NCBI RefSeq assembly: GCF_041146795.1
Contig: NC_135185.1
Coordinates: forward strand, 13,055,529 to 13,119,528
Source of the DNA: Maylandia zebra
Lineage: Eukaryota > Chordata > Actinopteri > Cichliformes > Cichlidae
Length of the DNA stretch: 64,000 nucleotides
Direction of reading: 5' to 3'
Shown here: positions 15,759-64,000 of the stretch, one piece after another
Numbering within the stretch: the stretch's first letter is position 1
Layout: each line of letters starts with the position of its first letter
Notes under the pieces: model-generated
The model's input: only the letters and a program-made list of their open reading frames with translations
Databases searched by the model: none
What the model was told of the DNA's origin: nothing
Position numbers and translations under genes: made by a program

Positions 15759-15925
15759 GAGCCCCCCCCCCCCCCTTAAGGGCGGATTCCAGACGCCCTA
15801 AAACCTCGAAAAACAAAACCAAAAACAACCCACCAAGGGCGGGCGGTGGGGGTCCAGGACGGAGGGCCAGAAACAAGGCCAAAAAAAAACAAAATGTCCA
15901 TCAAAAATCACAGGAGCGCAGGGAA

Positions 15926-19099: not shown

Positions 19100-19247
19100 T
19101 TTTCTTTAAGCAGATCTGCATATCGGAAATTACAAGCATTACACGTCGGCGAGAAAATTGTTGTAAGTGACTTTCTCCGCATTGAAATGGGTTCTGGAGG
19201 AAACACTTGTGGGGACAATTAGAAACGAGAGTCCCTGTTTAAAAAAG
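19100..19247. other. Palindrome spacer (148 bp)
   Basis: Unique sequence between the two arms, and the loop of the predicted hairpin. No feature recognised. Confidence 0.85.
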
Positions 19248-21369: not shown

Positions 21370-21370
21370 G

Positions 21371-23935: not shown

Positions 23936-23952
23936 GACTGGTCAGTTCGTTC

Positions 23953-24601: not shown

Positions 24602-25159
24602 GGTAGAGTGGAGACCAAAATAAAGTGAATTACAATAATCATGCTTTGTGACTTGATACTTGCATATTTGCAGAGTTGACTGACTTGGAAGCTTTTAATC
24701 ATGTAAATGTCTGCATTTCTTCTATTCTTCTCTCCGTTCGTGAACAACAGACAGCTGTACCAGTAAAAAAAAACAGATCAGGGAGGGCTTATCACGTGCT
24801 GACAGAAGCAGCCTCGGGCATTTACAGGTATGATAAAAACAGCAGAGTTTCTCTCCACCCACAGTCACTGCTGTCTAGCTTTTTGAGGTAAGGCAAGGTA
24901 CTGTACTCGTACTGTAAACATTCTTAAGCAGCTTGGTTTACACTTTTTTTTTTTTACCTCTTTTTGTAACAGTTATGTGGTGTTGGTATTGTTACATTAT
25001 TAACGCTGAAAAATACTTTACAGTCTTATGTAAAAGACTCTTGTGTAAAGGAGTACACCTACTTAGTGATGTCCTTTGGGCACGTCGAAGAAGAAAAACG
25101 AGTTTGTGTAATGAGAATTAAAGCTAATCTTTACACTTCTTAATGTTTGTTTTCAACAG
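24602..25159. other. LINE remnant tail, then 5' flank of the plus-strand calpain
   Basis: 24602-24660 continues the antisense LINE repeat cut by LTR element 3. The rest has no coding exon. A possible non-coding first exon of the calpain ends at about 24889, where TTTTTGAG is followed by GTAAGG; the next acceptor is TTTCAACAG at 25151-25159. This first exon is a guess from one donor site. Confidence 0.45.
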
Positions 25160-39134: not shown

Positions 39135-39614
39135 TTAGGCTGGTTGTAGTAGCATTTGTAGTACAGCTGTTAGCAGAGCACCCAGCATCATAGTTGTCTG
39201 GGATTTTCCAAGCTCCACTTCCCCATTGGTTAGAGAGGCAGTGGTGGTGCTGTTGGAGCCTGGTGCAGTGGTGGTGCTGTTGGAGCCTGGTGCAATGGTG
39301 GTGCTGTTGGACCCTGGTGCAGTGGTGGTGCTGTTGGAGCCTGGTGCAGTGGTGGTGCTGTTGGAGCCTGGTGCAATGGTGGTGCTGTTGGACCCTGGTG
39401 CAGTGGTGGTGCTGTTGGAGCCTGGTGCAGTGGTGGTGCTGTTGGAGCCTGGAGTTGGGCTGATTCTGTTGCTGATCAGACCCAGATTCAGTGTGTCCAG
39501 CTCTGACTGCAGCTGCAGGTTGATCCAGGTCTGAACTACAGTATCATTCTCAAACAGCTTCAGATCAGGTAGGTGCATACCCACGAGGCCTTTAACGTTG
39601 CTCACAGTCAAATT
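39135..39614 (-). CDS. Last exon of mesothelin-like gene: conserved segment, Ser/Thr stalk, GPI signal
   Basis: The exon encodes 159 residues and a TAA at 39135-39137. It starts NLTVSNVKGL and includes TWINLQLQSELDTLNLGL, a close counterpart of the mesothelin C-terminal segment. Eight tandem nonapeptides APGSNSTTT/I follow (39232-39450 approximately), each with an N-glycosylation sequon. The end is a small-residue region (TNGE) followed by a hydrophobic stretch (MMLGALLTAVLQMLL) with no cytoplasmic tail, the pattern of a GPI-attachment signal. Confidence 0.88.
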   Translation of the reverse strand, partial: NLTVSNVKGLVGMHLPDLKLFENDTVVQTWINLQLQSELDTLNLGLISNRISPTPGSNSTTTAPGSNSTTTAPGSNSTTIAPGSNSTTTAPGSNSTTTAPGSNSTTIAPGSNSTTTAPGSNSTTTASLTNGEVELGKSQTTMMLGALLTAVLQMLLQPA

Positions 39615-42600
39615 CTGTGAATTTTAAATAAATAACAGAAAACAAAATTAGTCTGAAGCTGTTAACACACAAGACAAAGAAGCCAAATATAAATGCCTTC
39701 TTTTTAAATATTATCATATTATGTTAAATAAAGAGCATGAGAAATTTGAAAGACTACATATGGTGGTTTATGTTGCCAAAGCACCTAAATCAGGAACTTG
39801 GTTGACATTTACATATATCAGCAGCAGTTTAGCTATTTCTTATAAGAACTATTTAAAAAGAAAATCATAGTTTTCAAGGCACAACTCAGACATATAATAA
39901 AGTCACAATAAAAATTAGATGTAGGCGGATGTCCAAAAAGTTTTCGTTTCATTTCTTTAACAACTATTCTTACAGCTATAACAGCAGGGTCCAGACTGCT
40001 GAAAGTGCTTATGTCCATGCTGATGTTTTGTGTTGACAGTGTTACTATATCCTGCAGAGGTGCTCCACCTATCAAGAAAGGAAATGAAACAGGAAATTAG
40101 AAAGCAGTTTTATGAGAAATAGAGAAACAGCTACGCAAACAGACAAAATGTATTCTCACCTAGATAGGGCTTAATCAACTGGTAAATGATACTGGAGCTG
40201 GACCGTTGTGAGCTGAAGGAAGTGGTACTGATGCCATACAGGACTTGCTTCTGCTCAGCTGAACATGATGACACATTCAGAGGGCTGGCATTTCTGTCAA
40301 GGGGAAAGAAGAAAGAGACATACAGTGTTACGTGTGCATGACCACTCACATTTGGCAATGTTTTTATATCGTTGAGCTGCAATCTGACACCAACCTGATG
40401 CTGTCTGGGCTGATGGTCTGCAGTGTACTGGTGTTTAGTGAGCACAGGTTGGAGTCAATAATGGTCAGCTCAGTGCTGCCCAGCAAGTTTCCAGAAGTGC
40501 TCAGATACTGAGTGATGATTTTGTTGCTCTAAGCGACATTAAAGAAAAGGTATCATGTAAGAATAATAAGACTATTAAGGATAAAAGTGAAATGAATTCC
40601 ACCTCTTATACCTTTGCTGCCTCCCAGGGTCCATCTTCAGCTTTCATTAGAGCTGCAAGGGTGTCAATTTTGGTTATGTTCCACTTGGATATATCGTCAA
40701 GTGATGCCACACGAGACACTGATCCAAGCAACTGGACATCCTGATCAGGAATCCCTGACGGGAATGCCTGCAACAATAGAGAATGTGTAATGCTATGTGC
40801 TAATGTGCTAAATCCCAAATTTGAAACAATATCTCATTTGCAAATTCTGCCATTTAATAATAAGTCCGTCTAACATAATGAATGACATTTTGGCTCTTTT
40901 TCAAAATTCCCACACAAAATACCTCATTGAGTTTCTTTAGGATGACAGTCTGGAAACCATTATCATCCACTTTGTTGCAGATGGAGTTGAGGTTTTCTTT
41001 CAGAACGGGAACATCCAGGCAGAGGTCAAACTGCGTGAGATCATAGCCAAAGGGGAAGGCGGAGTCGCTAACTATCACCTGGGTGATGTTGCCCTTGGTA
41101 CAACCTTAAGAACAATTAGAGATGCAGATGAGAGTGCTGTGCAAGCTACGGTTGCCTTTATATATAAAAGCAAATATAATAATTAAGTCATATAACATTT
41201 GAGCATAAAATATGGGTTATTGTGCAAGTCTGTCTAACTTTAAAACCTGACTTCTCTAAGTTCACTGAATCTTTTGCTATCTGTACTCGTACCACTAAAG
41301 CAAAGTATTTACATTGTCTATTTATTTAAGTTATACAGTTATACAATTATTAATCTCCCGCTGACTAATTGTTTTTGCTTCAGTTTGAATAGCTGGTGTG
41401 AAAACAAATAAGAGCAAGGTCGCACCTGCTCCTCGTTTTGTTGTCCGGCCGCTGATCGCTTGGAACAGCGTCTTGAGCTTGCTTTTCTCTGTGTTTGCTT
41501 TCCTCAGTTTGGGCATGAAGGTCTTCAGGAACATTTTCTTTGTTGTCTGTAAAAAACACAAAGGTACCCAAACTGATTTCTAACACAAGTTATTTGAATG
41601 AATATTGTTAGACTAGATACTATCAAGCAACGAGAAAAAACATACAGAATCGAACCGGTTCCAGATATTTCTTGTGAAGTAGAGTGGAAGGGGTACGAGG
41701 TTCTCCAGTGTTTGCTTGTTCCAGGAAGCGGCATTTCTGAAAATAGAAGAGGATATTTTCTTACAGTGCTAACTTGAAAGAGGTAGTATGGGCTACAAAA
41801 TTTGGTGGCATGGCTACTAGGTATTATATATACAAAGTCCTCAAAATGAAACTGGCAAGTTTGTGCCAATGAATCAAGGTTTATGACTTCATTTAAAAAA
41901 ATAAGGTAGGAGTTAAACTTGTGCAGCTAACTGATAGCTCTACAAAAAATATAACTGAGTTACAGAGTTGTGCTTTTGGTGCAAATTAATCTCTGCATAA
42001 TAAAATTATTGAAGTTTGCTTATGAATTTCCTTTGAGAGCTGTTTGGTTTCTAATTGTTGTCTGCTCAGAGTTCCTTAGCCCAATTTCAAAAGGCCGATG
42101 ACTTAGCTTAAACTAGCTTAAAGCACAAAACTCCCCACATCTGTAATCAAACGCTTCTGCAGTCTACACCAGCTCTCTATACCGGAAGCCACAAAATGTA
42201 ACTGTTTTCCTTAGAGGCTAAATCAGAGGATTATGTAATGGATTATATAGTTTAATCTGACTCAAGATACAAGATTAAACTGCAAATCTGTTATATAACT
42301 TATCTAACTCCTCTAAGCCTGGAAACTTTATGAAACATTGTTCCCCAGAGTGGTTGAAGGTATAATATCGGCACGGCCAAAACTGTGATTGGCTCATGGC
42401 TTCCCCTCAGATGTTCAGATATTCTCCTTTTCAGTAACAAATCAATCACACTGCAAATACGAACACAATTGTCACCATGTTTGATATGTTTGATGTGTGC
42501 ATGATGCACAACAGCATTAACAACACTACTAGTTGTGTTTTTTAAACTCCTGACAGAATGACTTGTTTTTATCATTGTACCCATATTGTGTTGTTCCAGA

Positions 42601-45600
42601 CAGCAGCAATGTCTCCATGGCTGCCACCTGGCTGGCAGAGAAGTCATTGCAGGCTTTAAGTTTCTCCAGGATGAGAGGATCTGCGTTCTGTATGTAAGAC
42701 CCATCCAGAGTGCAAGCCATGTTCCCCAAGATCTCTATATTCTCTCTGCTCAGGCTCAAGCCATTTATACCCTGAAAACAGAAAACAGGAAAATGCTGTA
42801 TTTAAAAAACTGTGCACGCATGCAACCTTATCAGTGTCAGAGTGTAATTCATGCATTTATTACCTTTAGACATATACATGTAAAAAAAACCATCACTCAC
42901 CAAGCACACAGTGGCTTCACGGAACAGCTGCGAGCCCTTATTCAAGATTTTGGAGGCCACAGAGAAGTCTGCCGCACCCAGTGCAGAAAAGTATGACCTG
43001 CAGTTGCCTTTGTTAACATTTTTGCTGCTGTTTTTAGAAAAAAAAGAAAGGTAAAATCAGTAATTATTCTTCACATTAGTGATGCATTTTAAGGTGAGTG
43101 CAAGAAAATGCTTGGAGACACCGAATCACCTTAAGTAGAGAAGCATGTCTGATGGATAATCTGTAAAGTTTTGTGAGATTTCTCCACTCAGCAAGTTGAG
43201 CATGCAGGTTAGCTGTAGAAAACAGTGTGGGAAAAAAGAGGATTCCTCAGTGATATGCAAGTAAGCTGTTTCTAACACTGAAACTGATGATTCGTGCATT
43301 ATCCTAACTTTCAAAAGAAAAAGAAATCCTCAACCTGATGATTTATGTTTCTGTTATATTATATCCATATAACATACACATCTTAATTGTTAACTTCATT
43401 TTAAGAGTCATAGTAATATTATTAAATTCCTTTCTAACAGATGTTACCTGGGATTCCTTTAACTGCACTTTGGCTCGGCCTGACCGGGGCCTACAGGCCC
43501 TGATTAGCTCCTTGGTCCTGAATTGTGTCATTTTCTGGGCAGAAGTGCAAGTGAAGCCTTGCAGCACTGAGGGAGAAAGCCTGCGGGGAGGATTGATGAA
43601 CACCAGAAAGAAATGATAAATAATCCCCTCTTCAAAATAAACCTACAGGGCCAAATAGTTATATGACTTGTTCACTTACTGCTCAATGTCAAAGTTTGTG
43701 TTGTCAAGGACCCCCAAAAAGATGGCAGCCTAAAAGAACAAAAAAAGAACAAAAGTTTCGTATTATTATCTGTAACATCGACTTTAAAAAGTCATTTTTG
43801 ATTAATAATGCTATTGTGTGTATTTAACAAAATGTTAACCTGATCTGGTGTCCAGGTTTTTCTATTGAGCACGGTGATGTCTGCAGATTGGTCAGAAAAC
43901 ACCAACAGGGATGGTGGGATCTCAACTGCCATAGCATCTGGCACATTCAGCACCACTTGTGATGGATTTGTGTCCAGAGAAATGATCTACCAGGTAGGTA
44001 AATGCATTTAGGATTAAATGTAATGAGTGGAGTAATAATATCATGGAATACAGAGTTAATATTGATATCAAAGTAATTCTAATATTTAAATATCATAATG
44101 CCAAAGATAAATAAGTTGATGTCCTCCAGATCATAGCATTTACTTTATATTGTCTTGTGGAAGCTAACGTTGTACCTTTTTGACGAAGGTCATTTGGACA
44201 ACACTTGGGGCTGCCAGCATGTTGGAAACGAAGGTGGTGCTCTTTGAGACGCTGAGTAGCACAGAAGCGCTGGTGTTTTCTATTGCTTCTGAAGGAAGTC
44301 CAATAACAAGCGTGCCAAGGGATGCCAGGGAAGATTCGCTGTTGATCTGTTAACACATTTCAAGTTTTTGAAGCCTCATTCTCTAAAGTGGTAAGCATCT
44401 TAGAGTTATTTTGTATTTTATAAAACCTTACTGGATTAATATATAACATCGTTAGGCACATGCATTTAAGATCTAACATGGATATCAGGTATATTAAGTG
44501 GACCTGAAGGGCGTTACCTGGAAGCCTGAGGCAGTAAGGGTTTGGATGATTATTGAGGCCTGATCCTGGCTCCAGGTACTGATTGAGCCCAGGGTGGACA
44601 AAGAAGAGATGAGCACTGATGAGGGAACTGAACTGATCTGGCTGTTACTCAGCCCTGCGCTGGAGCTTCCAAGAGCTGTAAATATCTGTGGTGTAATTGT
44701 CTTGATGTTGGATGCCAAAGCAGCAGAAACCTTTCAAATAAAATATCAAAACATGTGTAAACAGGAGTAACTGCAAAGAGAATTATGTCTGATAACATAG
44801 TTATTAAGTACCAGAGTTATATTATTAATAAGGGACTAATTTTAACAGAGTTAAAATTAAGATGGCCTTTGCGAGAGAGCATACTGTTCAGAGTTCAGGT
44901 TTTTTTGTTAACATTTAGCTCAAAACCAGCATTTACAACAATGAGATTTATGGTTGGTTTTTGCTAGAAACAATTCAACTCTGTTTGTTTTTAGGGCTGG
45001 TACCTCAGGGTCCTGGGTGCCATTGCAGAAAGTCTTCAGATTGTCTAAGATAACCATGGTTTCAGCTTCAGTCATAGTAGTATATGCCAAAGGTGGCACC
45101 GCAGAAGAGCACAGGAAAAAGCCTGGGAGACTGAATGAAAACAGATTTTTAACTACAAATACAGAATGACTACCACTGAACTGCTAAATTATATGCGGTG
45201 TATGGTTCACATAACACAGTTTGCTGTTTTTATCAGGCTGGTAATACTTACTTGACCGGCTTGAAGTTCGGATCGAATGCAAAAAGCTGTGTGACATAGT
45301 AGTTGGTTACATTTGCTGGGATTGCGTTATTGTTGAAGAGTTCCAGGTTGGCTTGGTTCTTCAAGAACACTTGAAACTTTAAAAATTAAGAAACAAAACA
45401 GGTCGATAATACTGATTTCTGTTAACCATGTTAACATTCCCACCAAAATCACGGACTTTGTATTTTGCTTTATTAACTGTGCATATGTGATCTCTGGAAA
45501 TACCTGAGCGGTGGAGACAAAGGTGGTGAGGTCATCCAGAGTGATAAATGTCACAAAGTTCCCGATGTTACTGACAAACCAGGCAGTAGAGTTCAGTTCT

Positions 45601-48600
45601 GCATCACTGGCATTGTAGCATCTGGCTCCAGAACCTGTGGAACCAAGAAAAGCAGAACACACAGACAATAAATAACTTGTTAAGCGATCTCCCCTTATAC
45701 GAATCGACATCAGTTTTGGCATTACGTGGCTCAAAATTTAAGACCACCTACTCTTTTCACTCAGCAAGCACACTGACTTCAGATGAGCCAGAAAAGACAA
45801 ACAGATGCGTGTTATGTGCACTTTATATTTGGTAAGGTCCACGCATGTTACACCACCTGTTTCGTCCCAGTAAGTTAGCACATACATGTTTCTTCTCTGT
45901 CTGGCAGTTGCTATTATCCTTTGGGGCTGTGTGGAACATGTATGCCTACACATATCCGCTAATGCAATAAGTATGTAAGGAAGGAAGGTGTTTAATATGG
46001 TATATAGATCAAAATGTTGAAGCAGATTCAAACCAGGAGGAAACATGACTGCAGTAATCATTCCACATAAACTGTAAACCCCCTCTTAGAAGTAGATTCT
46101 GATCTTTTTCCACAAATGTAAATTGTTGCAGCTAGGTGCATTTTACAAACTCTTTGTGAATAGTCGGGCAGTATATTTTTAAAATAATTTTTACCCATTT
46201 CATATAATTTGAAAAAAAAAAAAAAGACAAGCAGACATAGTTTTTAAATTCCTTGAATTCCACACACAGATGTATACATACACAGTGCTTTTACAACACT
46301 TTTGATCATTAATAAATCTTACCAGCACTCAAGTAGGTCTTGATGGTGGTATAAACGTACTGCTGTTCAAACTCAGAGCTGTTGTATGCGAAGTTATTTC
46401 CCATCACATAGACCCTGTTGAAAGGAAAATGATGAAAAACGTGGTCATCATGTAATTAATTCACTTATCTTGAGACACAATGAAAAAGAGACTTACAGTT
46501 TCTGGAAGGCAAAACATGAGGCGTTCTGCACTTCGTCGGGGCTGATGAGGCTCTTGCTGAGGAATCTAAGATAGTTCCTCAGTCGTAGGTCAAACCATAA
46601 ATTAGCCTCAGCTCTGCTCCTGCTATTCAGCGCAGAAGGCCAAATACAGGGGAGGATCACCTTCTTTACATTGTCTTGAACATCCTCCTAGGGTATAACA
46701 CATACGTTTTCACATGTAATGACAAACTGAAGTATAACTGTCAATTTAAGTGACAAGCAGTATTCTTGCTTGAATACTGCTAAGGTCAGTATACATTTTC
46801 TGTGAAGCCAATAATGTTGTATGTAAAACGTAGACAGTATTTAAGGGACATACAGTCTCAAGGAAGGCAGAAGTGTTGTTGTAGTTGTTGAAGATGACAC
46901 AGATGTCAGTACTGTTACCAATCACATTGGGCTGACTAAGGAACTGGCCAAGCTCTGAGGTGCTGATGGTATCCAGAAGCTGGAGAAAGATTAAAAAACA
47001 AAACAGAATACATAACTTAATATATTATATTAGTGCACAGGTGTGTGCTATTTTATTTCCTTATTTATCTATTTTTTACCTCTGATTTGCGCATTGGTGG
47101 CAGAAGTGACACTAACGTGGACAAATCTGGAAAACCAAAGCTGAGGAAAGTGTTCCTCAGATAGACATAGAAGCTTCCACCACCGTAACACTTGAGTGGT
47201 GGTGGACCTGTTTTTAACACAAAGGAAATCACTTTTTAAACTAACATTGATTTGGTTACACATGTCACATCTGAAGAACAAACAAGTGAAAACAAAACAG
47301 TAACTTATGTCACAGATGTTTTTCATTATTAGCTTTTGAGTTAACAAACCTTGAAGGAAGACAATGATGTTTTTGTAGATCTCGCTTTGGGTGCTGCTGC
47401 TGAGTGTTGTGGTCAATGTGTCCAGCAATGCAAACCTAAATTCAGACAAATTGGAAAAAAACAATTATAGAAATATCGATCAAACGCCACTTCATTTGAT
47501 CCAGAATCCTCCACATAACATTTACCCCAAGGTGTTTTTGATCACAGCAAATATACAGCAATTTCTAAAACTGAGTGTACAAATTCTTACATCTCTTGGC
47601 TGCTGTTACAACTCCTTTTTATCCCGATGCTGAATAAGGGTGTCACCAGGCTGGAAGAGAGGTTGGTCAGGAGAGGACTCAGGCGAACTCTGAGCCATAG
47701 CAGGAAGTCTCCATCACTGACAGTTGGAGATGACAGATTCCCTCTGTTGAAAACTGCTTCAAGGAATGCAGACTTCACTTCCTGTGAGTAGTTAGCTGAG
47801 TGGACCTGGGGTGAAATTACATAGCATGAGTAAAATGCTTACAAGAAAGTAAAAAGTATTTGAATTTGAACCATAATCCAGCTGTTAGTTTTGAAACACA
47901 GCTGAATTTTAATAACCTGTTTTTCCCCATTGTGTTATCCAGAATTACTTTTTTAACTTTCAACGTCTGGCTTAGAACTGTTTACAAGTCAAAAGCTTAA
48001 ACTGCAGCTTACAACCAAAAGATGGTGTGGAAACGCTGCACAGAAGAAATGGCATCAGTTTTTTTTTTTAACTAAAACAACCTGTTTTGATATCTGAACA
48101 GCACTGTCTGACAGAAATGATCATAACCTTTTAACACAGAGTTGTGATATATACATTTCAAAGATTATATGTCAGGACCACAGAAACAAACAACCTTCTC
48201 CTTAACTTCCTTGATGGTCGTGCCAAGCCTGTCTTTCTGAGAGTGGTTTCACAACAGTTAATCACATATTCACAATTAATTCCTAAACCAAAGCAAGTAT
48301 GTGTGTTGCCTAAACTACAAATATAAACTAAAGATACAAAGGCACACTGATGCCTACACTAACCATAAAGCAGCAGACGGAAATAACTACTTACTCTAAC
48401 AATTGTGAACAAATGTAAAGCCTAGCTGCCCAAACCTAAGCCCCGCCCCCCAAAAAACAAACCAACCAAAAACACTTCCCTGAGGCTGCAATGAATGGAT
48501 GAATGAATGAATGGATGACAAAACAAATAAATAAATAAATAAAACGTTGCCTTAACCTATCTAAACCCAGATTGAAAGTCAAAACTAGCTATCTAAACGA

Positions 48601-54600: not shown

Positions 54601-57600
54601 TAGCTGGTGAGACTTCATCAAAGAAAGCGCCAAAGTCAAAAGGATTGATGACTGCCATGACGTTCATAACATCTTCCTTGCTCTTTAGCTGGGAAGGAGT
54701 TGCTGCAAGGTTGACCACCTGACTAAAAGTGAGCAGATCTGCTATATTCACCTGGAAGATACAACCAGCAATTCAGTAAGAAAACAAAAACAAGTTGGCA
54801 TATGCCTACATTTGTTTTCTTCAATTCACTGTGAGGGACACTATATGTTTTTCACTTATTTACCTTTAACCCTCTAAGGTTAATTCATCATAGGGGGTAA
54901 CCCCACTCTATTATTGCTGCACACCCAAAACATTTTTTTGGACGTAAAATATTCTAGAATGTTGTTTTACTGTTCTCAGGGAGGACAAGAACTAAAATTT
55001 ATGGCTTACCATGGAGATGTTGAAGTCTTTGAGGTCAGAGTATGATGTATATTGGACAAATGGACCCAGATTTGCTTTAACCCATTGGGCATCACTCTCA
55101 TTTTGTTGCCTGCAAGCTAAGGCATGCAGACAAAAGTTAGGATGTGCTCAATTTAGCAAGGTTTGTGACTGGTAGAGATGAAAGAATTTAAGTTTTTTGT
55201 CTGAGTGCTTTTCAAGACATTTCACTCTGGAAAGCACATAACGCACCCTATGTCTGCCCTACCTGGCTCATTGATGGCATTTTCAGCATTTCTTAGATAG
55301 CCCAGCAGACCATGTGTGATCTCTTGCCGTCTGTACAGTGGCATCTCCTGGATAACTGAAGCCAACCCACTCACACTGCAACAGTTGAAAGAAAACGTTC
55401 TCATGCTGTTCTTTGTCAGTATTGTCATTTTCATTTGCAACAAAATCTTGATTGCTCCAAGAAAACTACTCACATGACTTGGTAATTCATGCAGCTGATG
55501 TTTGTGGTTGTGTTTATGAGCATTTCTGGAGTAAAACTGGCAAGGATAGGAATCAGTTTCACATGGAACCAAAGTTCATAGTCGTTTGTCGTGAAAGTGG
55601 AGAAATGTGGACTGATGATGATGAAGGTCGTATTCATGATCCGATCTCTCACAACAGGCTGGAAATGTGGGGTCTGTCATATTAAAGTGGAAAAAGACAT
55701 AAGCAAAGGTGAGATTGCATGTTGGAAGTACACCCATACAACATGGTACAAAAGCTGTAACCATTTGTTTTCTAAGATACAATAGCCAACAATGGATGTA
55801 GCGGTTGAGACCTATGTTTTATTCTGTGTTTACTTCTGGAATCAAATATCTGCATTGTCCTCCTTCACCCTTTTAGGAGGCTAGCCTACCTGTCCATTGG
55901 CTGTCAGCTGTGTCAGGAATTCATCCACATTTTTTAGAACATTGCCCTCTTCAAGTTTTTCAAACACAAGATCAATAAAATCTGTGTTATTTGAGGCTCC
56001 AGAGCTCAGTAGCAGCTGTGCCACCTCAGAGGGATTGAGCGTTGACAACAATCCAGCCTACAACAGGGAATCAACATAATATCAGACAACAGTAATGACC
56101 AATGCTGTGGGTAAAGGATTAGTGTTTGCAACCAAAGAAAGTGTGCTCTATGATTTGCTTGTATTTTTGATATGGCAAAATAAACTCCTGTGTTTGTCTT
56201 CTTAAGTCTACAATTTTGTTTTCCTGTTCTTAAGGGAGGACTAGAAGTGCAATGTAGGGCTTACCGTAGAGATGTTGAAGTCTTTGAGGTCAGAGTATGA
56301 TGTATATTGCACGAATGGACCCAGATTTGCTTTAACCCATTGGGCATCACTCTCATTTTGTTGCCTGCAAGCTACAAACAAAAGTTAGGATGTGCCAAAT
56401 TTAGGAAGGTTTTTGACAGGTAGACATGAAAGAATTTGTGGGCAAGTTTTTTGTCTGAGTGCTTTTCAAGACATTTCACACTGGAAAACACATAACGCAC
56501 CCTATGTCTGCCCTACCTGGCTCATTGATGGCATTTTCAGCATTTCTTAGGTAGCCCAGCAGACCATGTGTGATCTCTTGCCGTCTGTACAGTGGCATCT
56601 CCTGGATAACTATAGCCAACCCACTCACACTGCAACAGTTGAAAGAAAACATTCTCATGCTGTTTTTTGTCACTATTGTCATTTTCATTTGCAACAAAAT
56701 CTTGATTGCTCCAAGAAAACTACTCACATGACTTGGTAATTCATGCAGCTGATGTTTGTGGTTGTGTTTATGAGCATTTCTGGAGTAAAACTGGCAAGGA
56801 TAGGAATCAGTTTCACATGGAACCAAAGTTCATAGTCGTTTGTCGTGAAAGTGGAGAAATGTGGACTGATGACGATGAAGGTCGTATTCATGATCCGATC
56901 TCTCACAACAGGCTGGAAATGTGGGGTCTGTCATATTAAAGTGGAAAAAGACATAAGCAAAGGTGAGATTGCATGTTGGAAGTACACCCATACAACATGG
57001 TACAAAGGCTGTAACCATTTGTTTTCTAAGATACAATAGCCAACAATGGATGTAGCGGTTGAGACCGATGTCTTATTCTGTGTTTACTTCTAGAATCAAA
57101 TATCCGCATTGTCCTCCTTCACCCTTTTAGGAGGCTAGCCTACCTGTCCATTGGCTGTCAGCTGTGTCAGGAATTCATCCACATTTTTTAGAGCGTTGCC
57201 CTCTTCAAGTTGTTTAAGCACAAGATCAATAAAATCTGTGTTATTTGAGGCTCCAGAGCTCAGTAGCAGCTGTGCCACCTCAGAGGGATTGAGCGTTGAC
57301 AACAATCCAGCCTACAACAGGGAATCAACATAATATCAGACAGCAGTAATGACCAATGCTATGGGTAAATGAATAGAGTTTGCAACCAAAGAAAGTGTGC
57401 TCTATGATTTGCTTGTATTTTTGATATGGCAAAATAAACTCCTGTGTTTGTCTTCTTAAGTCTACAATTTTGTTTTCCTGTTCTTAAGGGAGGACTAGAA
57501 GTGCAATGTAGGGCTTACCGTAGAGATGTTGAAGTCTTTGAGGTCAGAGTACGCTGTATATTGGACGAATGGACCCAGATTTGCTTTAACCCATTGGGCA

Positions 57601-60600
57601 TCACTCTCATTTTGTTGCCTGCAAGCTAAGGCATGCAGACAAAAGTTAGGATGTGCTCAATTTAGGAAGGTTTGTGACTGGTAGACATGAAAGAATTTAA
57701 GTTTTTTGTCTGAGTGCTTTTCAAGACATTTCACACTGGAAAACACATAATGCACCCTATGTCTGCTCTACCTGGCTCATTGATGGCATTTTCAGCATTT
57801 CTTAGGTAGCCCAGCAGACCATGTGTGATCTCTTGCCGTCTGTACAGTGGCATCTCCTGGATAACTGAAACCAACCCACTCACACTGCAACAGTTGAAAG
57901 AAAACATTCTCATGCTGTTCTTTGTCTCTATTGTCATTTTCATTTGCAACAAAATCTTGATTGCTCCAAGAAAACTACTCACATGACTTGGTAGTTCATG
58001 CAGCTGATGTTTGTGATTGTGTTTATGAGCATTTCTGGAGTAAAACTGGCAAGGATAGGAATCAGTTTCACATGGAACCAAAGTTCATAGTCGTTTGTCG
58101 TGAAAGTGGAGAAATGTGGACTGATGACGATGAAGGTCGCATTCATGATCCGATCTCTCACAACAGGCTGGAAAATTGGCATCTGTGAAATTGAGGTGGA
58201 AAAGAAGCTAAGCAATACAGAGACTGCATGTTGTAAATGTACTCATACAACATGTCACAAAGGTTGCAAACAAGTCTTCTCTATGATAGACTCCTTGAAG
58301 AGTTGTGTAGCGGTTTAGCAAATGTCTTATTCTGTCTTATCCTGCTGGAATAAAACACCAGGATTGTCCTCCTTCACCCTTTTAGAAGCCTAGCATACCT
58401 GTCCATTGGCTGTCAGTTGTGTGAGGAATCCATCCACATTTTCTAGAGCGTTGCCCTCTTGCAGTCGCTCAAACACACGATCAATCAAATCTGTGTTATT
58501 GGAGGCTCCCAAACTCAGTACCAGCTGTGCCACCTGAGAAGGACTGAGGACTGACAACAATTCAGCCTACAAAAGAGAACCAGCATAATATCAGACAGCA
58601 GTCATGGAAATGTTCTGGGTAAAAGAATTCCGTTTACAGGAAGATGTACATCTGCAGTTGGCACTCACAGCGGACAAATTAGGATTGAAGGCTTCCAAGT
58701 CCTGCACAGTTGCAAAATCAGAGAAGTCGCCAAGGTTTGCCTTTAGCCACGCTTGGCTCCCCGTGATAGATGAGACACAGCCAGGATCTGCAGAAAAAGC
58801 AAGAAAGTTATTGACAGGGTAATATACCACATGTTGTCATGGAAAAACCAAAGTGAGCTTGAGTTTCTCCTTTTACCTGTTGAGTCATTTCTTGACAAGA
58901 ACGGTTTGATGAAGTGAGTGAAGACTGCTTGCTGTGTGTCTCTGTCCATGGATGCCTTTTGGCTTCCAAATGCCTGAATGCTACATTTGAGAGAAAGCTT
59001 TCAACATCTAAACTTCTAGTCAACTGCACATTTGCAGAACAGAGCTATATGTCTCATATTTACTTACACAGTCTGGTATGTCTGGCAGCTGAAGTTTTTG
59101 GAGCTAAGGCAAAATAGGAAGTTGAAAGATGGAACGGCCAGAAACGGACGGATCTTTGTCTTGAACCAGCTGGTAATGAACTCCTCACTCTGTAGTTGTG
59201 CCTGGCTGAAGTTGTCAATTCTCACTTCTCCAAGAGCCTCGAGCACATTTGACGAGGTCGGGTAGGTGTTGTTGACGGCCTTGAATTGGCAGAAAAATAA
59301 TTGTAGCTGGACCCAAACTTCACGCAGGGAAATGGCAATATTGTGAAAATGTGATTTTGTACTTACCATGTTAGCAAATGTCTCAAGGGCCTGGTCCAGT
59401 ACAGCAGAGGCTTTTTGGAAGAAAAGCTTCCAGACTTCTACTGGGTATATGTTTTGGCTTTTCAGTGTGCAGTTCAGCAGTGTGACCAAGTTGCTGGATG
59501 TGAGATAGGGAGCCTTGAAAAAGAAAATTGACAAAGAATACAGCCATTTTGTCAGAGCTCATGGAGATTTGTCTCAGGACCATAATGGGCAAAATCCATG
59601 TTCTGTTTTTGGAGTTTAAAAAGGAATCTTACAGAGGAACAGGCATGTTCTGTGATGGTGAAATTGCACAGGGCTGCCGAGGAATTGCCAGCTGACAGGA
59701 TTTGCTCAAGTTTTGAACTGTGGAAAAAACACAATAAATTGAAATCCAATGTCCCCTTAATTACACTGTTAACAAATTTTACCTAGACAGAATCAACATT
59801 GAACAAAACGGCATTTCACCCACCCATCAACTCCATTACAAATGAGATTCACTGTGAAAAGAGAATGGTTGTGTGTCAGATAATAGTCCTTCAGAATGCA
59901 TTTATATCCTTAGAGTTGAAATGTGTACTTCTAGACAGACTTACCATGAACTGGGGTCACCTTGCACTGAAGACAAAGAGAATATGAGTGTTAGTATAGT
60001 GGAAACATCTTCTTCAAGTGTAAATACCTTGACTTTGTCACAGTTGGCCCAATTAGTGTGCCAAACCTGGATCAAATATTGGATAACCCATGTAAGACAC
60101 CCCCCACACCCACCCACCCACCCCCCAAAAAACTAATCTTACCACAAAGGAAGCTGGAACTGAGCAGCCTGTTTGAGAAGAAAAAGAAAGGAAACAAATC
60201 AATGGAGTAGTCATTACAGTGCTGGTACTGGGCTTTTGGGAAAAGTTTAGTCAGGAAAGCCCATTTGCCACATACGTGGGAATGTGTCCTGGAGGTACTG
60301 CTTGCTTGATCTCACGCCCTGTGAAAGGTCCAGTGGCAATGCTGCCAAACTCTGCGCAAGACCATCGTATCTAAAGGAAGAAAAGAATTCATTGTGACTT
60401 GTCAGGAGCCTCAGCTTGGCATTGTGCACACCCAAATGTCTAACTGTGGATATCAGAAATATCTTACACAGCCTGGTAGGATTCACAGGTGATGTTACTG
60501 GGGATCACCCGCAAGCTGCTAGGAAGGATGCTCGCCATCACAGGAACCAAATAAACCTGGAACCACTGTTGATAGTCTTCTGGCTGAAAGTCTTTAAGCT

Positions 60601-63600
60601 GAGGAGCAAGGGCTGTCAAGGTCAGGCTCAAAATGGTGTCTCGCACATCTGGATTTTGGATGAGGGTGACATTTCTCTGAAAAGAGAAGGGGATCATAAT
60701 AAGGTCAGAGAGGAAGTTCTGAAGTCTTTGTGGAAATGCGGAGATGAGGGGGAGCTTATCTAAACTAAATCTTTGTACTTCTGTACAGCAGGGATGCCTC
60801 AAGGCATGAAGCATATCAGAAATGGATCATTTTCAGTTAAACACTTGAGCAGGTTTATGAAAGAACACTGTTAACATTTGTTGATGTTTGCGCTGAGGTA
60901 AGGTTACCAATGAGAATTCACCTGCTTGTTGATGTTTGCAAAAGCCTGGAAGAATTGGTTGAGCTGCTCATAATCACTGGTCTCTGTCAAGCTTGTCAAC
61001 ACCTCCCTTACAACATGTGCATCGTTTAAAGCACCACTGTTTGGATCTAGGATTAGATCAGCCTTTTGCGATGGTGAAAGAACGTCCAGAACTGCCAGCT
61101 ATGGATACAAAAAAGTAGAATTCATGAAATGCATGTCTTTTGTATAATTTCCAGAATTTTGCTTTGCTATTCTCAAGAAAGACAGGAAGAGTAATAAGAG
61201 TAAAGCTTACCGTAGAGATGTTGAAGTCTTTGAGGTCAGAGTATGATGTATATTGGACGAATGGACCCAGATTTGCTTTAACCCATTGGGCATCACTCTC
61301 ATTTTGTTGCCTGCAAGCTAAGGCATACAAACAAAAGTTAGGATGTGCCAAATTTAGGAAGGTTTTTGACAGGTAGACATGAAAGAATATGTGGGCAAGT
61401 TTTTTGTCTGAGTGCTTTTCAAGACATTTCACACTGGAAAGCACATAACGCACCCTATGTCTGCCCTACCTGGCTCATTGATGGCATTTTCAGCATTTCT
61501 TAGGTAGCCCAGCAGACCATGTGTGATCTCTTGCCGTCTGTACAGTGGCATCTCCTGGATAACTGAAGCCAACCCACTCACACTGCAACAGTTGAAAGAA
61601 AACGTTCTCATGCTGTTCTTTGTCAGTATTGTCATTTTCATTTGCAACAAAATCTTGATTGCTCCAAGAAAACTACTCACATGACTTGGTAATTCATGCA
61701 GCTGATGTTTGTGGTTGTGTTTATGAGCATTTCTGGAGTAAAACTGGCAAGGATAGGAATCAGTTTCACATGGAACCAAAGTTCATAGTCGTTTGTCGTG
61801 AAAGTGGAGAAATGTGGACTGATGATGATGAAGGTCGTATTCATGATCCGATCTCTCACAACAGGCTGGAAATGTGGGCTCTGTCATATTAAAGTGGAAA
61901 AAGACATAAGCAAAGGTGAGATTGCATGTTGGAAGTACACCCATACAACATGGTACAAAAGCTGTAACCATTTGTTTTCTAAGATACAATAGCCAACAAT
62001 GGATGTAGCGGTTGAGACCTATGTTTTATTCTGTGTTTACTTCTGGAATCAAATATCTGCATTGTCCTCCTTCACCCTTTTAGGAGGCTAGCCTACCTGT
62101 CCATTGGCTGTCAGCTGTGTCAGGAATTCATCCACATTTTTTAGAACATTGCCCTCTTCAAGTTTTTCAAACACAAGATCAATAAAATCTGTGTTATTTG
62201 AGGCTCCAGAGCTCAGTAGCAGCTGTGCCACCTCAGAGGGATTGAGCGTTGACAACAATCCAGCCTACAACAGGGAATCAACATAATATCAGACAACAGT
62301 AATGACCAATGCTGTGGGTAAAGGAATAGTGTTTGCAACCAAAGAAAGTGTGCTCTATGATTTGCTTGTATTTTTGATATGGCAAAATAAACTCCTGTGT
62401 TTGTCTTCTTAAGTCTACAATTTTGTTTTCCTGTTCTTAAGGGAGGACTAGAAGTGCAATGTAGGGCTTACCGTAGAGATGTTGAAGTCTTTGAGGTCAG
62501 AGTATGATGTATATTGGACGAATGGACCCAGATTTGCTTTAACCCATTGGGCATCACTCTCATTTTGTTGCCTGCAAGCTAAGGCATGCAGACAAAAGTT
62601 AGGATGTGCTCAATTTAGCAAGGTTTGTGACTGATAGACATGAAAGAATTTAAGTTTTTTGTCTGAGTGCTTTTCAAGACATTTCACACTGGAAAACACA
62701 TAACGCACCCTATGTCTGCCCTACCTGGCTCATTGATGGCATTTTCAGCATTTCTTAGGTAGCCCAGCAGACCATGTGTGATCTCTTGCCGTCTGTACAG
62801 TGGCATCTCCTGGATAACTATAGCCAACCCACTCACACTGCAACAGTTGAAAGAAAACATTCTCATGCTGTTTTTTGTCACTATTGTCATTTTCATTTGC
62901 AACAAAATCTTGATTGCTCCAAGAAAACTACTCACATGACTTGGTAATTCATGCAGCTGATGTTTGTGGTTGTGTTTATGAGCATTTCTGGAGTAAAACT
63001 GGCAAGGATAGGAATCAGTTTCACATGGAACCAAAGTTCATAGTCGTTTGTCGTGAAAGTGGAGAAATGTGGACTGATGACGATGAAGGTCGTATTCATG
63101 ATCCGATCTCTCACAACAGGCTGGAAATGTGGGGTCTGTCATATTAAAGTGGAAAAAGACATAAGCAAAGGTGAGATTGCATGTTGGAAGTACACCCATA
63201 CAACATGGTACAAAGGCTGTAACCATTTGTTTTCTAAGATACAATAGCCAACAATGGATGTAGCGGTTGAGACCGATGTCTTATTCTGTGTTTACTTCTA
63301 GAATCAAATATCCGCATTGTCCTCCTTCACCCTTTTAGGAGGCTAGCCTACCTGTCCATTGGCTGTCAGCTGTGTCAGGAATTCATCCACATTTTTTAGA
63401 GCGTTGCCCTCTTCAAGTTGTTTAAGCACAAGATCAATAAAATCTGTGTTATTTGAGGCTCCAGAGCTCAGTAGCAGCTGTGCCACCTCAGAGGGATTGA
63501 GCGTTGACAACAATCCAGCCTACAACAGGGAATCAACATAATATCAGACAGCAGTAATGACCAATGCTATGGGTAAATGAATAGAGTTTGCAACCAAAGA

Positions 63601-64000
63601 AAGTGTGCTCTATGATTTGCTTGTATTTTTGATATGGCAAAATAAACTCCTGTGTTTGTCTTCTTAAGTCTACAATTTTGTTTTCCTGTTCTTAAGGGAG
63701 GACTAGAAGTGCAATGTAGGGCTTACCGTAGAGATGTTGAAGTCTTTGAGGTCAGAGTACGCTGTATATTGGACGAATGGACCCAGATTTGCTTTAACCC
63801 ATTGGGCATCACTCTCATTTTGTTGCCTGCAAGCTAAGGCATGCAGACAAAAGTTAGGATGTGCTCAATTTAGGAAGGTTTGTGACTGGTAGACATGAAA
63901 GAATTTAAGTTTTTTGTCTGAGTGCTTTTCAAGACATTTCACACTGGAAAACACATAATGCACCCTATGTCTGCTCTACCTGGCTCATTGATGGCATTTT
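39135..64000 (-). CDS. Mesothelin-like large cell-surface protein, 5' end beyond the window
   Basis: Minus-strand gene with more than 50 exons visible. The final 26 exons (54751 down to 39135) join in phase through every border into 3882 nt, 1293 codons plus stop. The last three exons align residue by residue with the C-terminal part of mammalian mesothelin as I know it: YLGGAPLQD, LSTQNISMD, then LDTLNLGL, followed by a stalk and a hydrophobic tail. Mesothelin, stereocilin and otoancorin form one superfamily predicted to fold as superhelical ARM-like repeats and usually held at the surface by a lipid anchor. Upstream, the coding sequence is built of four-exon cassettes (a, b, c, d). No signal peptide is seen because the first exons are off the right edge. 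A binding or adhesion role at epithelia is inference from the family. Confidence 0.85.
39229..39455 (-). repeat. 27-bp coding minisatellite (stalk repeats)
   Basis: About eight units of 27 bp. The third and sixth units carry the same two changes (GCAATGGTG and GGACCC on the plus strand), so an 81-bp three-unit block has itself been duplicated. All units stay in frame. Confidence 0.9.
39974..41104 (-). CDS. Mesothelin-like gene, exons before the last (C-terminal homology region)
   Basis: Exons 41104-40923, 40767-40612, 40528-40395, 40293-40160 and 40068-39974. They encode CTKGNITQVIVSDS, then SKWNITKIDTLAALM, ILTIIDSNLC-type (TELTIIDSNLCSL), CSAEQKQVLYG and GGAPLQDIVTLS segments. These correspond in order to the mature mesothelin region (CxP/D...QVLY, GGAP..DL.ALS). 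Junction phases (2, 0, 2, 1, 0) close perfectly. Multiple NxS/T sequons are present. Confidence 0.85.
41426..47805 (-). CDS. Mesothelin-like gene, middle exons (diverged cassettes)
   Basis: Exons, minus order: 47805-47591, 47435-47350, 47207-47080, 46979-46854, 46687-46497, 46414-46323, 45634-45504, 45376-45252, 45130-45004, 44730-44518, 44346-44176, 43986-43840, 43729-43680, 43580-43448, 43212-43130, 43024-42901, 42771-42581, 41736-41646 and 41546-41426. The first ones repeat the b-c-d-a length and phase pattern of the cassettes at 55-64 kb (for example d begins with a conserved Cys: CYNASDAELNSTAWF), so they are old diverged copies. The later ones (GNAASWNKQTLENLVPLPLY) look like the conserved superfamily core. 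All phases match. Confidence 0.83.
48411..48560. repeat. Simple repeats GAATGGATGAAT and AAAT
   Basis: Short interrupted arrays at about 48491-48519 and 48525-48543 in the 6.8-kb intron. The rest of 47806-48928 is intron with no recognised feature. Confidence 0.75.
49650..51838 (+). mobile_element. L2-clade (CR1-like) LINE, 5'-truncated, in the hAT element
   Basis: The element starts inside ORF2, keeps a reverse transcriptase and a 3' untranslated region with GGATCAATAAAGTATTC, and ends in short tandem GATTCT repeats (about 51810-51838). This tail is typical of fish L2 elements. 5' truncation is the usual result of target-primed reverse transcription. The left border is approximate. Confidence 0.85.
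49668..51617 (+). CDS. LINE reverse transcriptase (ORF2, N-terminally truncated, otherwise open)
   Basis: 649 open codons. The endonuclease domain is missing apart from its C-terminal fringe. Reverse-transcriptase motifs are in order: KSAGPDGVSPLVLK (near residue 205), the PVPKT..P..YRPVALTSHIMKTLERL stretch read in pieces, FFDFSSAFNTI, GAPQGTVLSPFLFTLYTTD, and the catalytic FSDDSAVVG. The C-terminal segment has AILYAVACWGSRL and LP.STTERHRKSFLP, the common ending of fish L2 proteins. No stop interrupts it, suggesting a young copy. It cannot retrotranspose alone because the endonuclease is absent. Confidence 0.9.
   Translation: MTDWETLCEPHAEDINGLTECITGYITFCTDSIVPAQTVHCYPNNKPWVTKDIKALLNNKKRAFRGGNKEEVRKIQVLLKDKIREAKDNYRRKLEWKLQQNSMREMWRGMKTITGFRPTNSRGAEGGENRADELNLFFNRFDTTVSAPTPTTSPAVSLESRATPLCQPLSSHVASCEIPDTPPPPITFTQYQVEMQMRRLHSGKSAGPDGVSPLVLKTCAPQLCGVFHKLFMLSLSLQRVPVMWKTSCLVPVPKTPRPSGPQDYRPVALTSHIMKTLERLILDQLRPIVRPHLDPLQFAYQPRLGTEDAIIYLLNRVYTHLDQPASTVRVMFFDFSSAFNTIRPTLLGDKLAAMQVDDSLVSWIVDYLTGRPQYVRLPQCVSDKVISNTGAPQGTVLSPFLFTLYTTDFSHCTETCHLQKFSDDSAVVGCISRDDETEYRAVVDSFVTWCEQNHLQLNVAKTKELIVDFRKTRKHLTPVSIQGVSVDIVEDYKYLGVHIDNKLDWAKNTTALYRKGQSRLYFLRRLRSFNICQKMLRIFYESVVASAILYAVACWGSRLRVADANRLNKLIRKASNVVGMELDSLKVVSERRMLSKIKTMLDNTSHPLHDMLVSHRSSFSERLRLPKSTTERHRKSFLPVAISLYNAST
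51995..52951. mobile_element. Terminal-inverted-repeat element with GTCGTGTCC ends
   Basis: GTCGTGTCCAAATTCATGGG at 51995 recurs inverted, ending at 52951, over about 38 bp with one mismatch noted. A diverged, truncated copy sits in the nested stack at 6731-7312. No intact transposase frame is seen; the target duplication is unclear (possibly ATTG). Superfamily not assigned. Confidence 0.75.
53205..54375 (+). mobile_element. THAP-domain DNA transposon fragment
   Basis: The ends are related inverted motifs: ATTCTGGGAACTCGTGGCAA at 53214-53233 and TTTGCCACGAGTACCCGGCA at 54345-54364. The segment 53394-53541 encodes the THAP zinc finger fragment below. The same repeat, reversed and partly deleted, is present at 5390-6223 plus 7778-7860. 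P-element-like and Kolobok elements both use THAP domains; I cannot decide between them. Confidence 0.7.
53394..53597 (+). pseudogene. THAP zinc-finger fragment of a transposase
   Basis: The open stretch has WIAAIRR followed by MLVCSKHFHKG, matching the THAP pattern (Trp-Ile/Leu-x-x-Ile-Arg-Arg, then Cys-x-x-His). A GTAAGT donor follows at 53542. The first zinc-binding Cys pair is not clearly preserved upstream and no catalytic domain is present, so the gene is non-functional. Confidence 0.65.
54596..54751 (-). CDS. Mesothelin-like gene, a-type exon linking the tandem cassettes to the 3' part
   Basis: 156 nt (VNIADLLTFSQVVNLAATP...). It begins in phase 0 after cassette 1 and joins in phase to the exon at 47805 across an intron of about 6.8 kb filled with transposons. 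It resembles the 168-nt a exons but is 12 nt shorter. Confidence 0.85.
55010..56057 (-). repeat. Exon cassette 1 of the mesothelin-like gene
   Basis: Four exons in minus order a (56057-55890, 168 nt), b (55673-55474, 200 nt), c (55375-55263, 113 nt) and d (55116-55010, 107 nt), total 588 nt or 196 codons. Exon a encodes NPSEVAQLLLSSGAS; b ends SCMNYQVM; c has YRRQEITHGLLGYLR; d starts with Cys and contains NESDAQWVKANLGPF. The cassette is in frame at both ends, so copies can be added or lost without a frameshift. Confidence 0.9.
56265..57311 (-). repeat. Exon cassette 2
   Basis: Exons a 57311-57144, b 56927-56728, c 56629-56517 and d 56371-56265, 588 nt. It lies about 1254 bp from cassette 1 and is nearly identical in exons and introns. 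Exon c has the Ala-Ile-Val variant (GLAIVIQ) shared with cassette 7. Confidence 0.9.
57519..58566 (-). repeat. Exon cassette 3
   Basis: Exons a 58566-58399, b 58182-57983, c 57884-57772 and d 57625-57519. Exon d and the d-c side match cassette 8 (GAGTACGCTG variant), while the b-a intron and exon a are more diverged, marking the edge of the recent homogenisation. Confidence 0.88.
58669..59513 (-). repeat. Exon cassette 4 (diverged)
   Basis: Exons a 59513-59367 (147 nt), b 59279-59068 (212), c 58980-58877 (104) and d 58787-58669 (119), total 582 nt, still a multiple of three. Exon d starts with the conserved Cys (GCVSSITGSQAWLKANLGDF); b ends SCQTYQTV. The same phases are kept despite low sequence identity. 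Confidence 0.85.
59633..61098 (-). repeat. Exon cassette 5 (diverged, d part irregular)
   Basis: Exons a 61098-60922 (177 nt), b 60676-60468 (209) and c 60370-60276 (95) are clear; b ends ITCESYQAV. In place of d there seem to be small exons near 60168-60143 and 59966-59945 and an 85-nt exon at 59717-59633 (LEQILSAGNSSAALCNF). I could not make the phases of the two small ones close, so this part is uncertain. Confidence 0.65.
61211..62264 (-). repeat. Exon cassette 6 (near copy of cassette 1)
   Basis: Exons a 62264-62097, b 61880-61681, c 61582-61470 and d 61317-61211. From exon c upward it follows cassette 1 at an offset of 6207 bp, sharing marker variants (AAAGCACATAACG, GLASVIQ). The d exon and d-c intron look more like other cassettes. 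Confidence 0.9.
62472..63519 (-). repeat. Exon cassette 7 (near copy of cassette 2)
   Basis: Exons a 63519-63352, b 63135-62936, c 62837-62725 and d 62578-62472. It follows cassette 2 at an offset of 6208 bp and shares GLAIVIQ and the exon a variant with LPSSSCLST on the opposite strand. Confidence 0.9.
63727..64000 (-). repeat. Exon cassette 8, partial (cut by the window end)
   Basis: Exon d 63833-63727 and the start of exon c (from 63980). It carries the cassette 3 variants (GAGTACGCTG, CACATAATGCACC), showing that the 6.2-kb block duplication continues beyond the window. Confidence 0.85.

What the first reader, a model, noticed from the sequence alone, without database searches (positions are those of the whole stretch)
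39135..64000. Mesothelin-like gene growing by frame-neutral four-exon cassettes
Seen: at least eight tandem copies of an a-b-c-d exon set, 588 nt each in cassettes 1-3, 6 and 7 (200, 113, 107 and 168 nt with fixed junction phases), and older copies with the same phase pattern back to 45 kb. Known: mesothelin, stereocilin and otoancorin are predicted ARM-like superhelices. Inference: each cassette adds one 196-residue superhelical segment, so copy number would set the length of a surface ectodomain and could vary between individuals. I do not know of a description of such an expandable mesothelin.
Basis: partly seen in the sequence, partly recalled or inferred. Interest (0 to 1): 0.78.

Follow-up and report, generated by a model that had tools for sequence, protein, structure and literature searches.

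The report
Giant mesothelin gene with nested repeats
A vertebrate (probably fish) gene related to human mesothelin appears to have grown to about 225 exons and 9,900 amino acids by copying a block of five protein segments over and over, so gains and losses of copies can lengthen or shorten the protein without breaking its reading frame.

Summary
The gene is on the minus strand. It starts 45.6 kb beyond the window and stops at window 39135. My model has 225 exons and 9,898 aa in one open frame with canonical splice sites. The repeat that grows is a higher-order unit of five cassettes: about 6.2 kb, 23 exons, 996 aa (three cassettes of 196 aa, one of 194, one of 214). Eight full units and one partial are present. 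All eight full units are intact and differ by 0-7 residues. Residues 9224-9785 are mesothelin (Pfam E 1.8e-75; solved human mesothelin 3.4e-38). The cassettes themselves match neither Pfam nor the PDB.

A second site 4 Mb away holds two more arrays. One, read in full, is an intact 4,672-aa frame without the mesothelin/GPI end. Units differ by about 0.3% within an array and 2.7% between arrays; unit counts are about 9, 6 and 5. This indicates recent, independent growth or homogenisation of each array.

Comparable coding repeats are known (LPA KIV-2, nebulin triplicate, piccolo b). I found none described for mesothelin. Expression, fold, cleavage and individual variation are untested.

The parts
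39135..39614 (-). last coding exon: end of mesothelin domain, Ser/Thr/Asn-rich stalk, hydrophobic C-terminal tail (GPI-signal-like), stop codon
   Evidence: tail ends ...MMLGALLTAVLQMLLQPA; GPI reading is by eye
39238..39452 (-). 27-bp coding minisatellite, 8 copies of PGSNSTT(T/I)A
39974..43986 (-). exons that, with the last exon, carry the Pfam Mesothelin match (protein residues 9224-9785 of 9898)
   Evidence: exon chain; Pfam E 1.8e-75; coordinates; human mesothelin chains E 3.4e-38
44176..45376 (-). 4 exons between the last old cassette and the Pfam match; parts also similar to the C6 mesothelin-like loci
41426..41546 (-). exon coding ...RTTKR-GA...: dibasic site (residues 9502-9503) close to where mammalian mesothelin precursor is cut by furin
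   Evidence: mammalian site from PMC2628672 passages; cleavage here is inference
45504..46979 (-). old cassette (d 126, a 191, b 92, c 131 nt)
   Evidence: C6 loci carry matches to its d, a and c exons
47080..54751 (-). old cassette (d 54596-54751, a 47591-47805, b 47350-47435, c 47080-47207) split by a 6.8-kb intron
49632..51614 (+). reverse-transcriptase-like ORF (661 aa) lying inside that intron, not part of the gene
   Evidence: identity by eye
55004..61204 (-). higher-order unit 1 (most 3'): cassettes 1-5, 23 exons, 2988 coding nt
55010..56057 (-). cassette 1 of unit 1 (588 nt)
56265..57311 (-). cassette 2 of unit 1 (588 nt)
57519..58566 (-). cassette 3 of unit 1 (588 nt)
58669..59513 (-). 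cassette 4 of unit 1 (582 nt: 147+212+104+119)
59633..61098 (-). cassette 5 of unit 1 (642 nt; c exon split into 26, 22, 28 and 85 nt)
61205..64000 (-). first 2.8 kb of higher-order unit 2, cut by the window end; units 2-9 and the 5' end of the gene continue to C19:13165101 (window coordinate 109573)

Best explanation
This is a frame-intact gene for a giant mesothelin-family precursor. It codes for a signal peptide, then 45 repeated ~196-residue segments with two conserved cysteines and many N-glycosylation sequons, then a mesothelin precursor with a GPI-type tail. An ancestral four-exon cassette N-terminal to the mesothelin domain was first duplicated and diverged into a five-member block. 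The whole ~6.2-kb, 23-exon block was then multiplied and kept near-identical, most likely by unequal crossing-over and gene conversion. Every cassette begins and ends in phase 0, so any such exchange keeps the frame. The array with its 5' part and upstream flank, but without the mesothelin end, was also copied into a site 4 Mb away and then duplicated there; one of those copies, read in full, is an open frame for a protein made only of the array. Shown: anatomy, open frames, low divergence within arrays, unequal copy number between paralogs. Inferred: the exchange mechanism, transcription of the whole gene, alpha-superhelical shape, secretion, likely release of the array from the anchored mesothelin part by cleavage at the dibasic site (as MPF is released in mammals), and use as a long glycosylated spacer or binding surface on or near epithelia. 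I rate the gene and expansion mechanism at about 0.88, the soluble-array product at about 0.45 and the tethered-ectodomain product at about 0.35.
For: One open frame of 9,898 aa over 225 exons, 223 of 223 internal exons with AG/GT. 8 of 8 full units have all 23 exons at identical length, canonical sites and no stop; 0-7 aa differences. No exonic indel in the comparisons; 0 exonic vs 6 intronic (cassette 1 vs 3), 0 vs 7 (unit, 13 Mb vs 17b), 0 vs 11 (5' region with flank); single-comparison probabilities 0.007, 0.010, 0.058; cassette 1 vs 2 had no indel of either kind. Cassette 1 vs 3: exons 6.1%, introns 13.8% different (Fisher p 3e-5). Mean difference within array 0.26% and 0.37%, between arrays 2.69%. 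Unit counts about 9, 6, 5 by exon-a hits 26, 16, 14. 17-Mb copy b: 108 exons, 4,672 aa, no stop. C-terminal part is mesothelin. Two C6 mesothelin-like loci carry matches to the d, a and c exons of the last old cassette.
Against: No transcript or protein evidence. Cassettes have no Pfam match over a cut-off (7 weak families, best E 8e-4, all below cut-off) and no PDB match as a profile up to E 5. Between the 13-Mb and 17-Mb arrays dN is close to dS (0.019 vs 0.022 for 17a and 0.020 vs 0.024 for 17b, 2,400 nt); cassettes 1 and 2 also have dN about equal to dS; in the N-terminal exons dN exceeds dS (0.019 vs 0.010, 15 substitutions). So strong purifying selection is not shown there; exon vs intron substitution between loci is not significant (p 0.10). 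A hydrophobic-moment test for helices was weak (z 0.3-1.7 for the cassettes, 2.0 for the mesothelin part). Copy counts rest on one assembly. Exons outside the unit are model predictions.
Confidence: 0.8

Rival explanations
1. The array stays tethered: copy number sets the length of a GPI-anchored surface ectodomain.
For: The 13-Mb gene model is open from a signal-peptide-like exon to a GPI-like tail; mesothelin is GPI-anchored in mammals (PMC2628672, passages).
Against: A KR dibasic site lies close to where mammalian mesothelin precursor is cut; the fully read paralog, and the 3' end of the other, lack the anchored part.
Confidence: 0.35
2. The exons are real but transcripts use only some of them: several shorter mRNAs start or end within the array, so no single 45-segment protein exists.
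For: No transcript data; intron 47806-54595 carries a retroelement ORF; whole cassettes and d exons are phase-symmetric, so skipping would be silent in frame.
Against: My model of the 13-Mb locus has one signal-peptide-like first exon and one mesothelin end; the mesothelin end is single copy at DNA level. Alternative promoters or ends were not searched for.
Confidence: 0.15
3. The number of units is an assembly artefact (false duplication of a shorter array, or false duplication of the 17-Mb segment).
For: Units are 99.3-99.6% identical to the reference unit and the two 17-Mb arrays are very close (dN 0.003, dS 0.002 over 2,400 nt).
Against: Units differ from one another by substitutions and intronic indels; the two 17-Mb arrays differ in unit number and lie in a locally duplicated segment.
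Confidence: 0.1
4. A decaying or non-coding tandem array (coding satellite without function).
For: dN close to dS between loci.
Against: No stop codon in 8 of 8 units nor in the full 17-Mb copy b and no exonic indel in the comparisons made; exons differ at under half the intron rate between cassettes 1 and 3.
Confidence: 0.05

Closest known systems
Human LPA kringle IV type 2 copy-number repeat
   Same: Multi-exon, ~5.5-kb unit repeated head to tail inside a secreted-protein gene and highly alike between copies (PMC4378929, passages read)
   Different: Two exons and one domain per unit; here 23 exons and five diverged segments per unit; kringle vs mesothelin-linked segment; population variation is proven for LPA and untested here
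Nebulin triplicate region
   Different: Muscle protein; three copies, not eight or nine
Teleost piccolo b zinc-finger exon amplification
   Same: Intragenic amplification of coding sequence in teleosts, attributed to unequal crossing-over (PMC3484663, abstract)
   Different: Single exon amplified 8-16 times; repeats of diverse length; no multi-exon block described in the abstract
Mesothelin precursor (MPF plus mesothelin)
   Same: C-terminal ~675 residues from the start of the Pfam match, GPI-like end, dibasic site near the mammalian cleavage position
   Different: Human precursor is 69 kDa (PMC2628672, passages); here 45 additional N-terminal segments
Stereocilin and otoancorin
   Same: Longer relatives of mesothelin predicted as ARM-type superhelices (PMC2628672, title and passages)
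   Different: No internal homogenised repeat is mentioned in the passages read; sequence relation to the cassettes not tested

Membership tests
Mesothelin family (PF06060) | Profile match over most of the domain | tested here: met
   C-terminal part: E 1.8e-75, profile 33-580 of 624
Mesothelin family (PF06060) | Cassettes themselves match the mesothelin profile | tested here: not met
   996-aa unit: PF06060 not among hits up to E 1; profile of 8 cassettes: no PDB hit up to E 5
Mesothelin family (PF06060) | Cassette is an ancestral companion of the mesothelin domain | tested here: met
   Two C6 mesothelin-like loci carry matches to the old cassette's d, a and c exons upstream of the domain; its b exon gave no separate hit there. 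One genome only
Mesothelin family (PF06060) | Signal peptide and GPI anchor signal | tested here: inconclusive
   Read by eye from the model; no predictor available
Mesothelin family (PF06060) | Furin-type cleavage between MPF and mesothelin | tested here: inconclusive
   KR site at residues 9502-9503, 23 residues before the start of the match to human mesothelin, but Thr and not Arg at P4
Mesothelin family (PF06060) | ARM-type superhelix in the cassettes | tested here: inconclusive
   Structure job never accepted; hydrophobic moment weak
Intragenic coding copy-number repeat (LPA KIV-2 kind) | Tandem near-identical multi-exon units | tested here: met
   8 full units plus one partial; 0.03-0.47% pairwise difference among the seven units compared
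Intragenic coding copy-number repeat (LPA KIV-2 kind) | Unit is frame neutral | tested here: met
   2988 nt, phase 0 at both ends in 8 of 8 units
Intragenic coding copy-number repeat (LPA KIV-2 kind) | Copy number differs between arrays | tested here: met
   26, 16 and 14 exon-a copies in the three arrays of this genome (150 of 210 candidates scored)
Intragenic coding copy-number repeat (LPA KIV-2 kind) | Copy number differs between individuals | not testable with these tools
   One genome only

The most novel reading that the evidence does not exclude
A mesothelin-family gene has turned its N-terminal segment into a copy-number-variable giant superhelix (up to 45 segments), built from homogenised five-segment blocks, and has spawned anchor-less paralogs that secrete the array alone. 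Array length would then be a fast-evolving, individually variable trait of a mucosal or reproductive surface.
Probability: 0.3. Interest if true: 0.8.

Novelty: new variant of a known kind. Interest (0 to 1): 0.62.

Why it matters
If the full protein is made, it would probably be among the largest extracellular proteins of its species. It would be a natural experiment in how unequal exchange builds a long repeat protein: one ancestral cassette, a five-segment block, then block multiplication, with three arrays of different length in one genome. It links a cancer-antigen family whose normal role is poorly known to a possibly length-variable extracellular scaffold. It also makes a testable case for copy-number polymorphism like that of LPA in a non-mammal. 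Short-read assemblies would probably collapse or truncate it (my inference), so it may be missed in other species.

Tried and rejected
Non-coding satellite: rejected because of intact frames and no exonic indel in the comparisons made; the diverged cassettes 4 and 5 do differ in length from 1-3, by multiples of three. Two separate genes divided by the retroelement at 49-52 kb: not needed, because the d exon at 54596-54751 and the a exon at 47591-47805 join in phase and complete a cassette. A first length-driven gene model overran introns and was replaced by one with a codon model. Placing one exon of the partial ninth unit from a local alignment lost 4 nt and broke the frame; it was corrected at the exon border. 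Cassettes vs Pfam and PDB: only weak matches below every cut-off, or none. DNA search for a second copy of the mesothelin end: none apart from five matches in the minisatellite part. Helicity by hydrophobic moment: inconclusive. On checking, I placed the Pfam match at residues 9224-9785; an earlier estimate of 9139-9700 was wrong. Literature: one search found 1 paper, none, six, 24 (15 listed), 3,077 (12 listed, none of which holds the word mesothelin). Of these I read passages in two, where mesothelin-like protein is one row of a proteome table (catshark semen PMC11083954; quail seminal foam PMC12853081): a lead for a reproductive role, not evidence. The rest I saw as titles and abstract starts; none of those describes an expanded mesothelin. 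The library is open-access only.
Full report
WHERE IT IS. The window is C19:13055529-13119528 of a 962-Mb, 63-contig assembly. I take the organism to be a teleost fish; that is an inference from genome size, transposons and receptor genes recognised by eye, and no call names it. The gene lies on the minus strand. I fetched the next 100 kb and continue window coordinates beyond 64000.

OBSERVATION. Exons of 168, 200, 113 and 107 nt with AG/GT borders and open frames recur as described. They sum to 588 nt and start and end in phase 0. Two of the five cassettes of the unit depart from 588 nt: cassette 4 is 582 nt, and cassette 5 is 642 nt with its c exon split into four small exons. Two older sets with the same phases precede the mesothelin part.

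THE TRUE REPEAT. Aligning one unit against the region shows a unit of 6,201-6,224 nt holding five cassettes, starting at 55004, 61205, 67413, 73630, 79837, 86054, 92271 and 98487, with a partial ninth at 104711. Seven full copies are 99.3-99.6% identical to the one used as reference, introns included. Mapping 23 exons onto 8 of 8 full units gives identical lengths, canonical splice sites, 2,988 coding nt and no stop in each. The proteins differ at 0-7 of 996 positions.

THE GENE. From a first exon at 109519-109573 (MGGIRMSVQVLLLSSIG..., signal-peptide-like by eye) through the partial unit, eight full units, two old cassettes and the mesothelin part to the stop at 39135, the model has 225 exons, 29,697 coding nt including the stop, 9,898 aa and a 70.4-kb span. 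All 223 internal exons have AG and GT. 58 exons lie wholly in the window and one more is cut by its end. A cassette motif (Trp-Phe/Leu ... Cys ... Gln) occurs 45 times. There are 265 N-glycosylation sequons and 156 cysteines. The exons outside the unit were placed by eye and with a dynamic-programming model trained mainly on the unit's exons; they are predictions.

WHAT IT IS. Residues 9224-9785 match Pfam Mesothelin at E 1.8e-75, and residues 9526-9785 match solved human mesothelin at E 3.4e-38. The protein ends in eight copies of a nine-residue Ser/Thr/Asn motif and a hydrophobic tail. The 996-aa unit has no Pfam match above a cut-off (seven weak ones, best E 8e-4), and a profile of eight cassettes finds no solved structure up to E 5. 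The link between cassette and mesothelin is therefore genetic, not by profile: one frame, plus two tandem mesothelin-like loci on C6 that carry matches to the last old cassette's d, a and c exons. The cassette looks like an ancestral neighbour of the mesothelin domain that was amplified on C19.

OTHER ARRAYS. All 58 matches to the unit's DNA, and all listed matches of the cassette protein (184 found, not all listed), are on C19. A second site at 17.08-17.21 Mb, in opposite orientation, holds two arrays. Exon-a matches number 26 (13 Mb), 16 (17a) and 14 (17b), 56 in all, with 150 of 210 candidates scored; the 26 agrees with my model and the 14 with the full reading of 17b. By their spacing this is about 9, 6 and 5 units, partial ones included. 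17b was read in full (34.8 kb): 108 exons, canonical borders, no stop, 4,672 aa, ending inside exon 5d with ...AKRGC-stop. 17a was read only in part (L025, L027, L028; about 23 kb): its 5' flank and first exons match the 13-Mb gene over 3.8 kb at 96.7% plus further blocks upstream, and by eye it ends at the same truncated exon. The mesothelin end has no second DNA copy. Receptor exons that I recognise by eye as olfactory/vomeronasal type C lie downstream, and the flank is itself repeated locally.

HOW IT GREW. Units differ by 0.03-0.47% within the 13-Mb array (mean 0.26%, 21 pairs of seven units), 0.10-0.55% within 17b (3 pairs of three units) and 2.5-2.8% between them (21 pairs). The arrays were thus re-amplified or homogenised after they separated. 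Unequal crossing-over with gene conversion is the standard explanation; it is inferred, not observed.

SELECTION. Exonic indels: 0 in the comparisons, against 6, 7 and 11 non-exonic ones in three comparisons (probabilities 0.007, 0.010 and 0.058 taken singly; the third counts introns and flank together). Cassette 1 vs 3: exons 6.1% and introns 13.8% different (p 3e-5). Against this, between loci dN is near dS (0.019 vs 0.022 and 0.020 vs 0.024), cassettes 1 and 2 have dN about equal to dS, N-terminal exons have dN above dS on 15 changes, and exon vs intron substitutions between loci do not differ significantly (p 0.10). About 3.5% of random substitutions would make a stop; for the roughly 80 exonic changes between loci (65 and 15) that predicts about three, and none was seen (my arithmetic). 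The frame is kept while residues change rather freely.

HOW IT MIGHT WORK. Mammalian mesothelin precursor is cut by furin into soluble MPF and GPI-anchored mesothelin, and the family is predicted to be ARM-type superhelices (PMC2628672, passages). Here residues RTTKR-GAGC (9499-9507) lie 19-27 residues ahead of the part that matches human mesothelin. If cut, the 45-segment array would be released as a giant MPF-like protein, and the 17-Mb copies would make such a protein directly. If not cut, it is a tethered ectodomain. I favour release slightly. Structure prediction was never accepted by the queue, and a crude helix test was weak, so the superhelix remains inference.

KNOWN AND NEW. LPA KIV-2 (two-exon, 5.5-kb unit, 1 to more than 40 copies; PMC4378929, passages), the nebulin triplicate (PMC9109913, listing) and teleost piccolo b (PMC3484663, abstract) are the same kind of event. 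A mesothelin-family case, a 23-exon higher-order unit and anchor-less array paralogs were not found in the searches made (listings, and passages of two papers). I file it as a new variant of a known kind.

Noticed in passing
window 15240-24150: Large inverted repeat: ORFs at 17084-17707 and 18322-18663 (+) recur at 20640-21263 and 19684-20025 (-), flanked by 27-51 bp coding-like minisatellites.
   Followed up: no
window 49632-51614 (+): 661-aa reverse-transcriptase-like ORF inside the 6.8-kb intron of the mesothelin gene (by eye).
   Followed up: no
window 521-1603 (+): Tc1/mariner-like transposase ORFs (by eye).
   Followed up: no
window 25115-26926 (+): Calpain-like exons (recognised by eye, not searched).
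   Followed up: no
C19:13184600-13193300 (L011-L012), minus strand: Peroxidase-like exons upstream of the mesothelin gene (by eye, not searched).
   Followed up: no
window 39238-39452: 27-bp minisatellite coding a Ser/Thr/Asn-rich stalk, 8 copies, 95% alike; another possibly length-variable part of the same protein.
   Followed up: partly
C6:13.873-13.903 Mb (L001, L002, L029, L030): Two tandem mesothelin-like loci with matches to one old cassette each; full gene structure not worked out.
   Followed up: partly
C19:17032340-17038092: A third copy of the 3' flank of the 17-Mb array, without listed array matches: the segment is itself locally duplicated.
   Followed up: no
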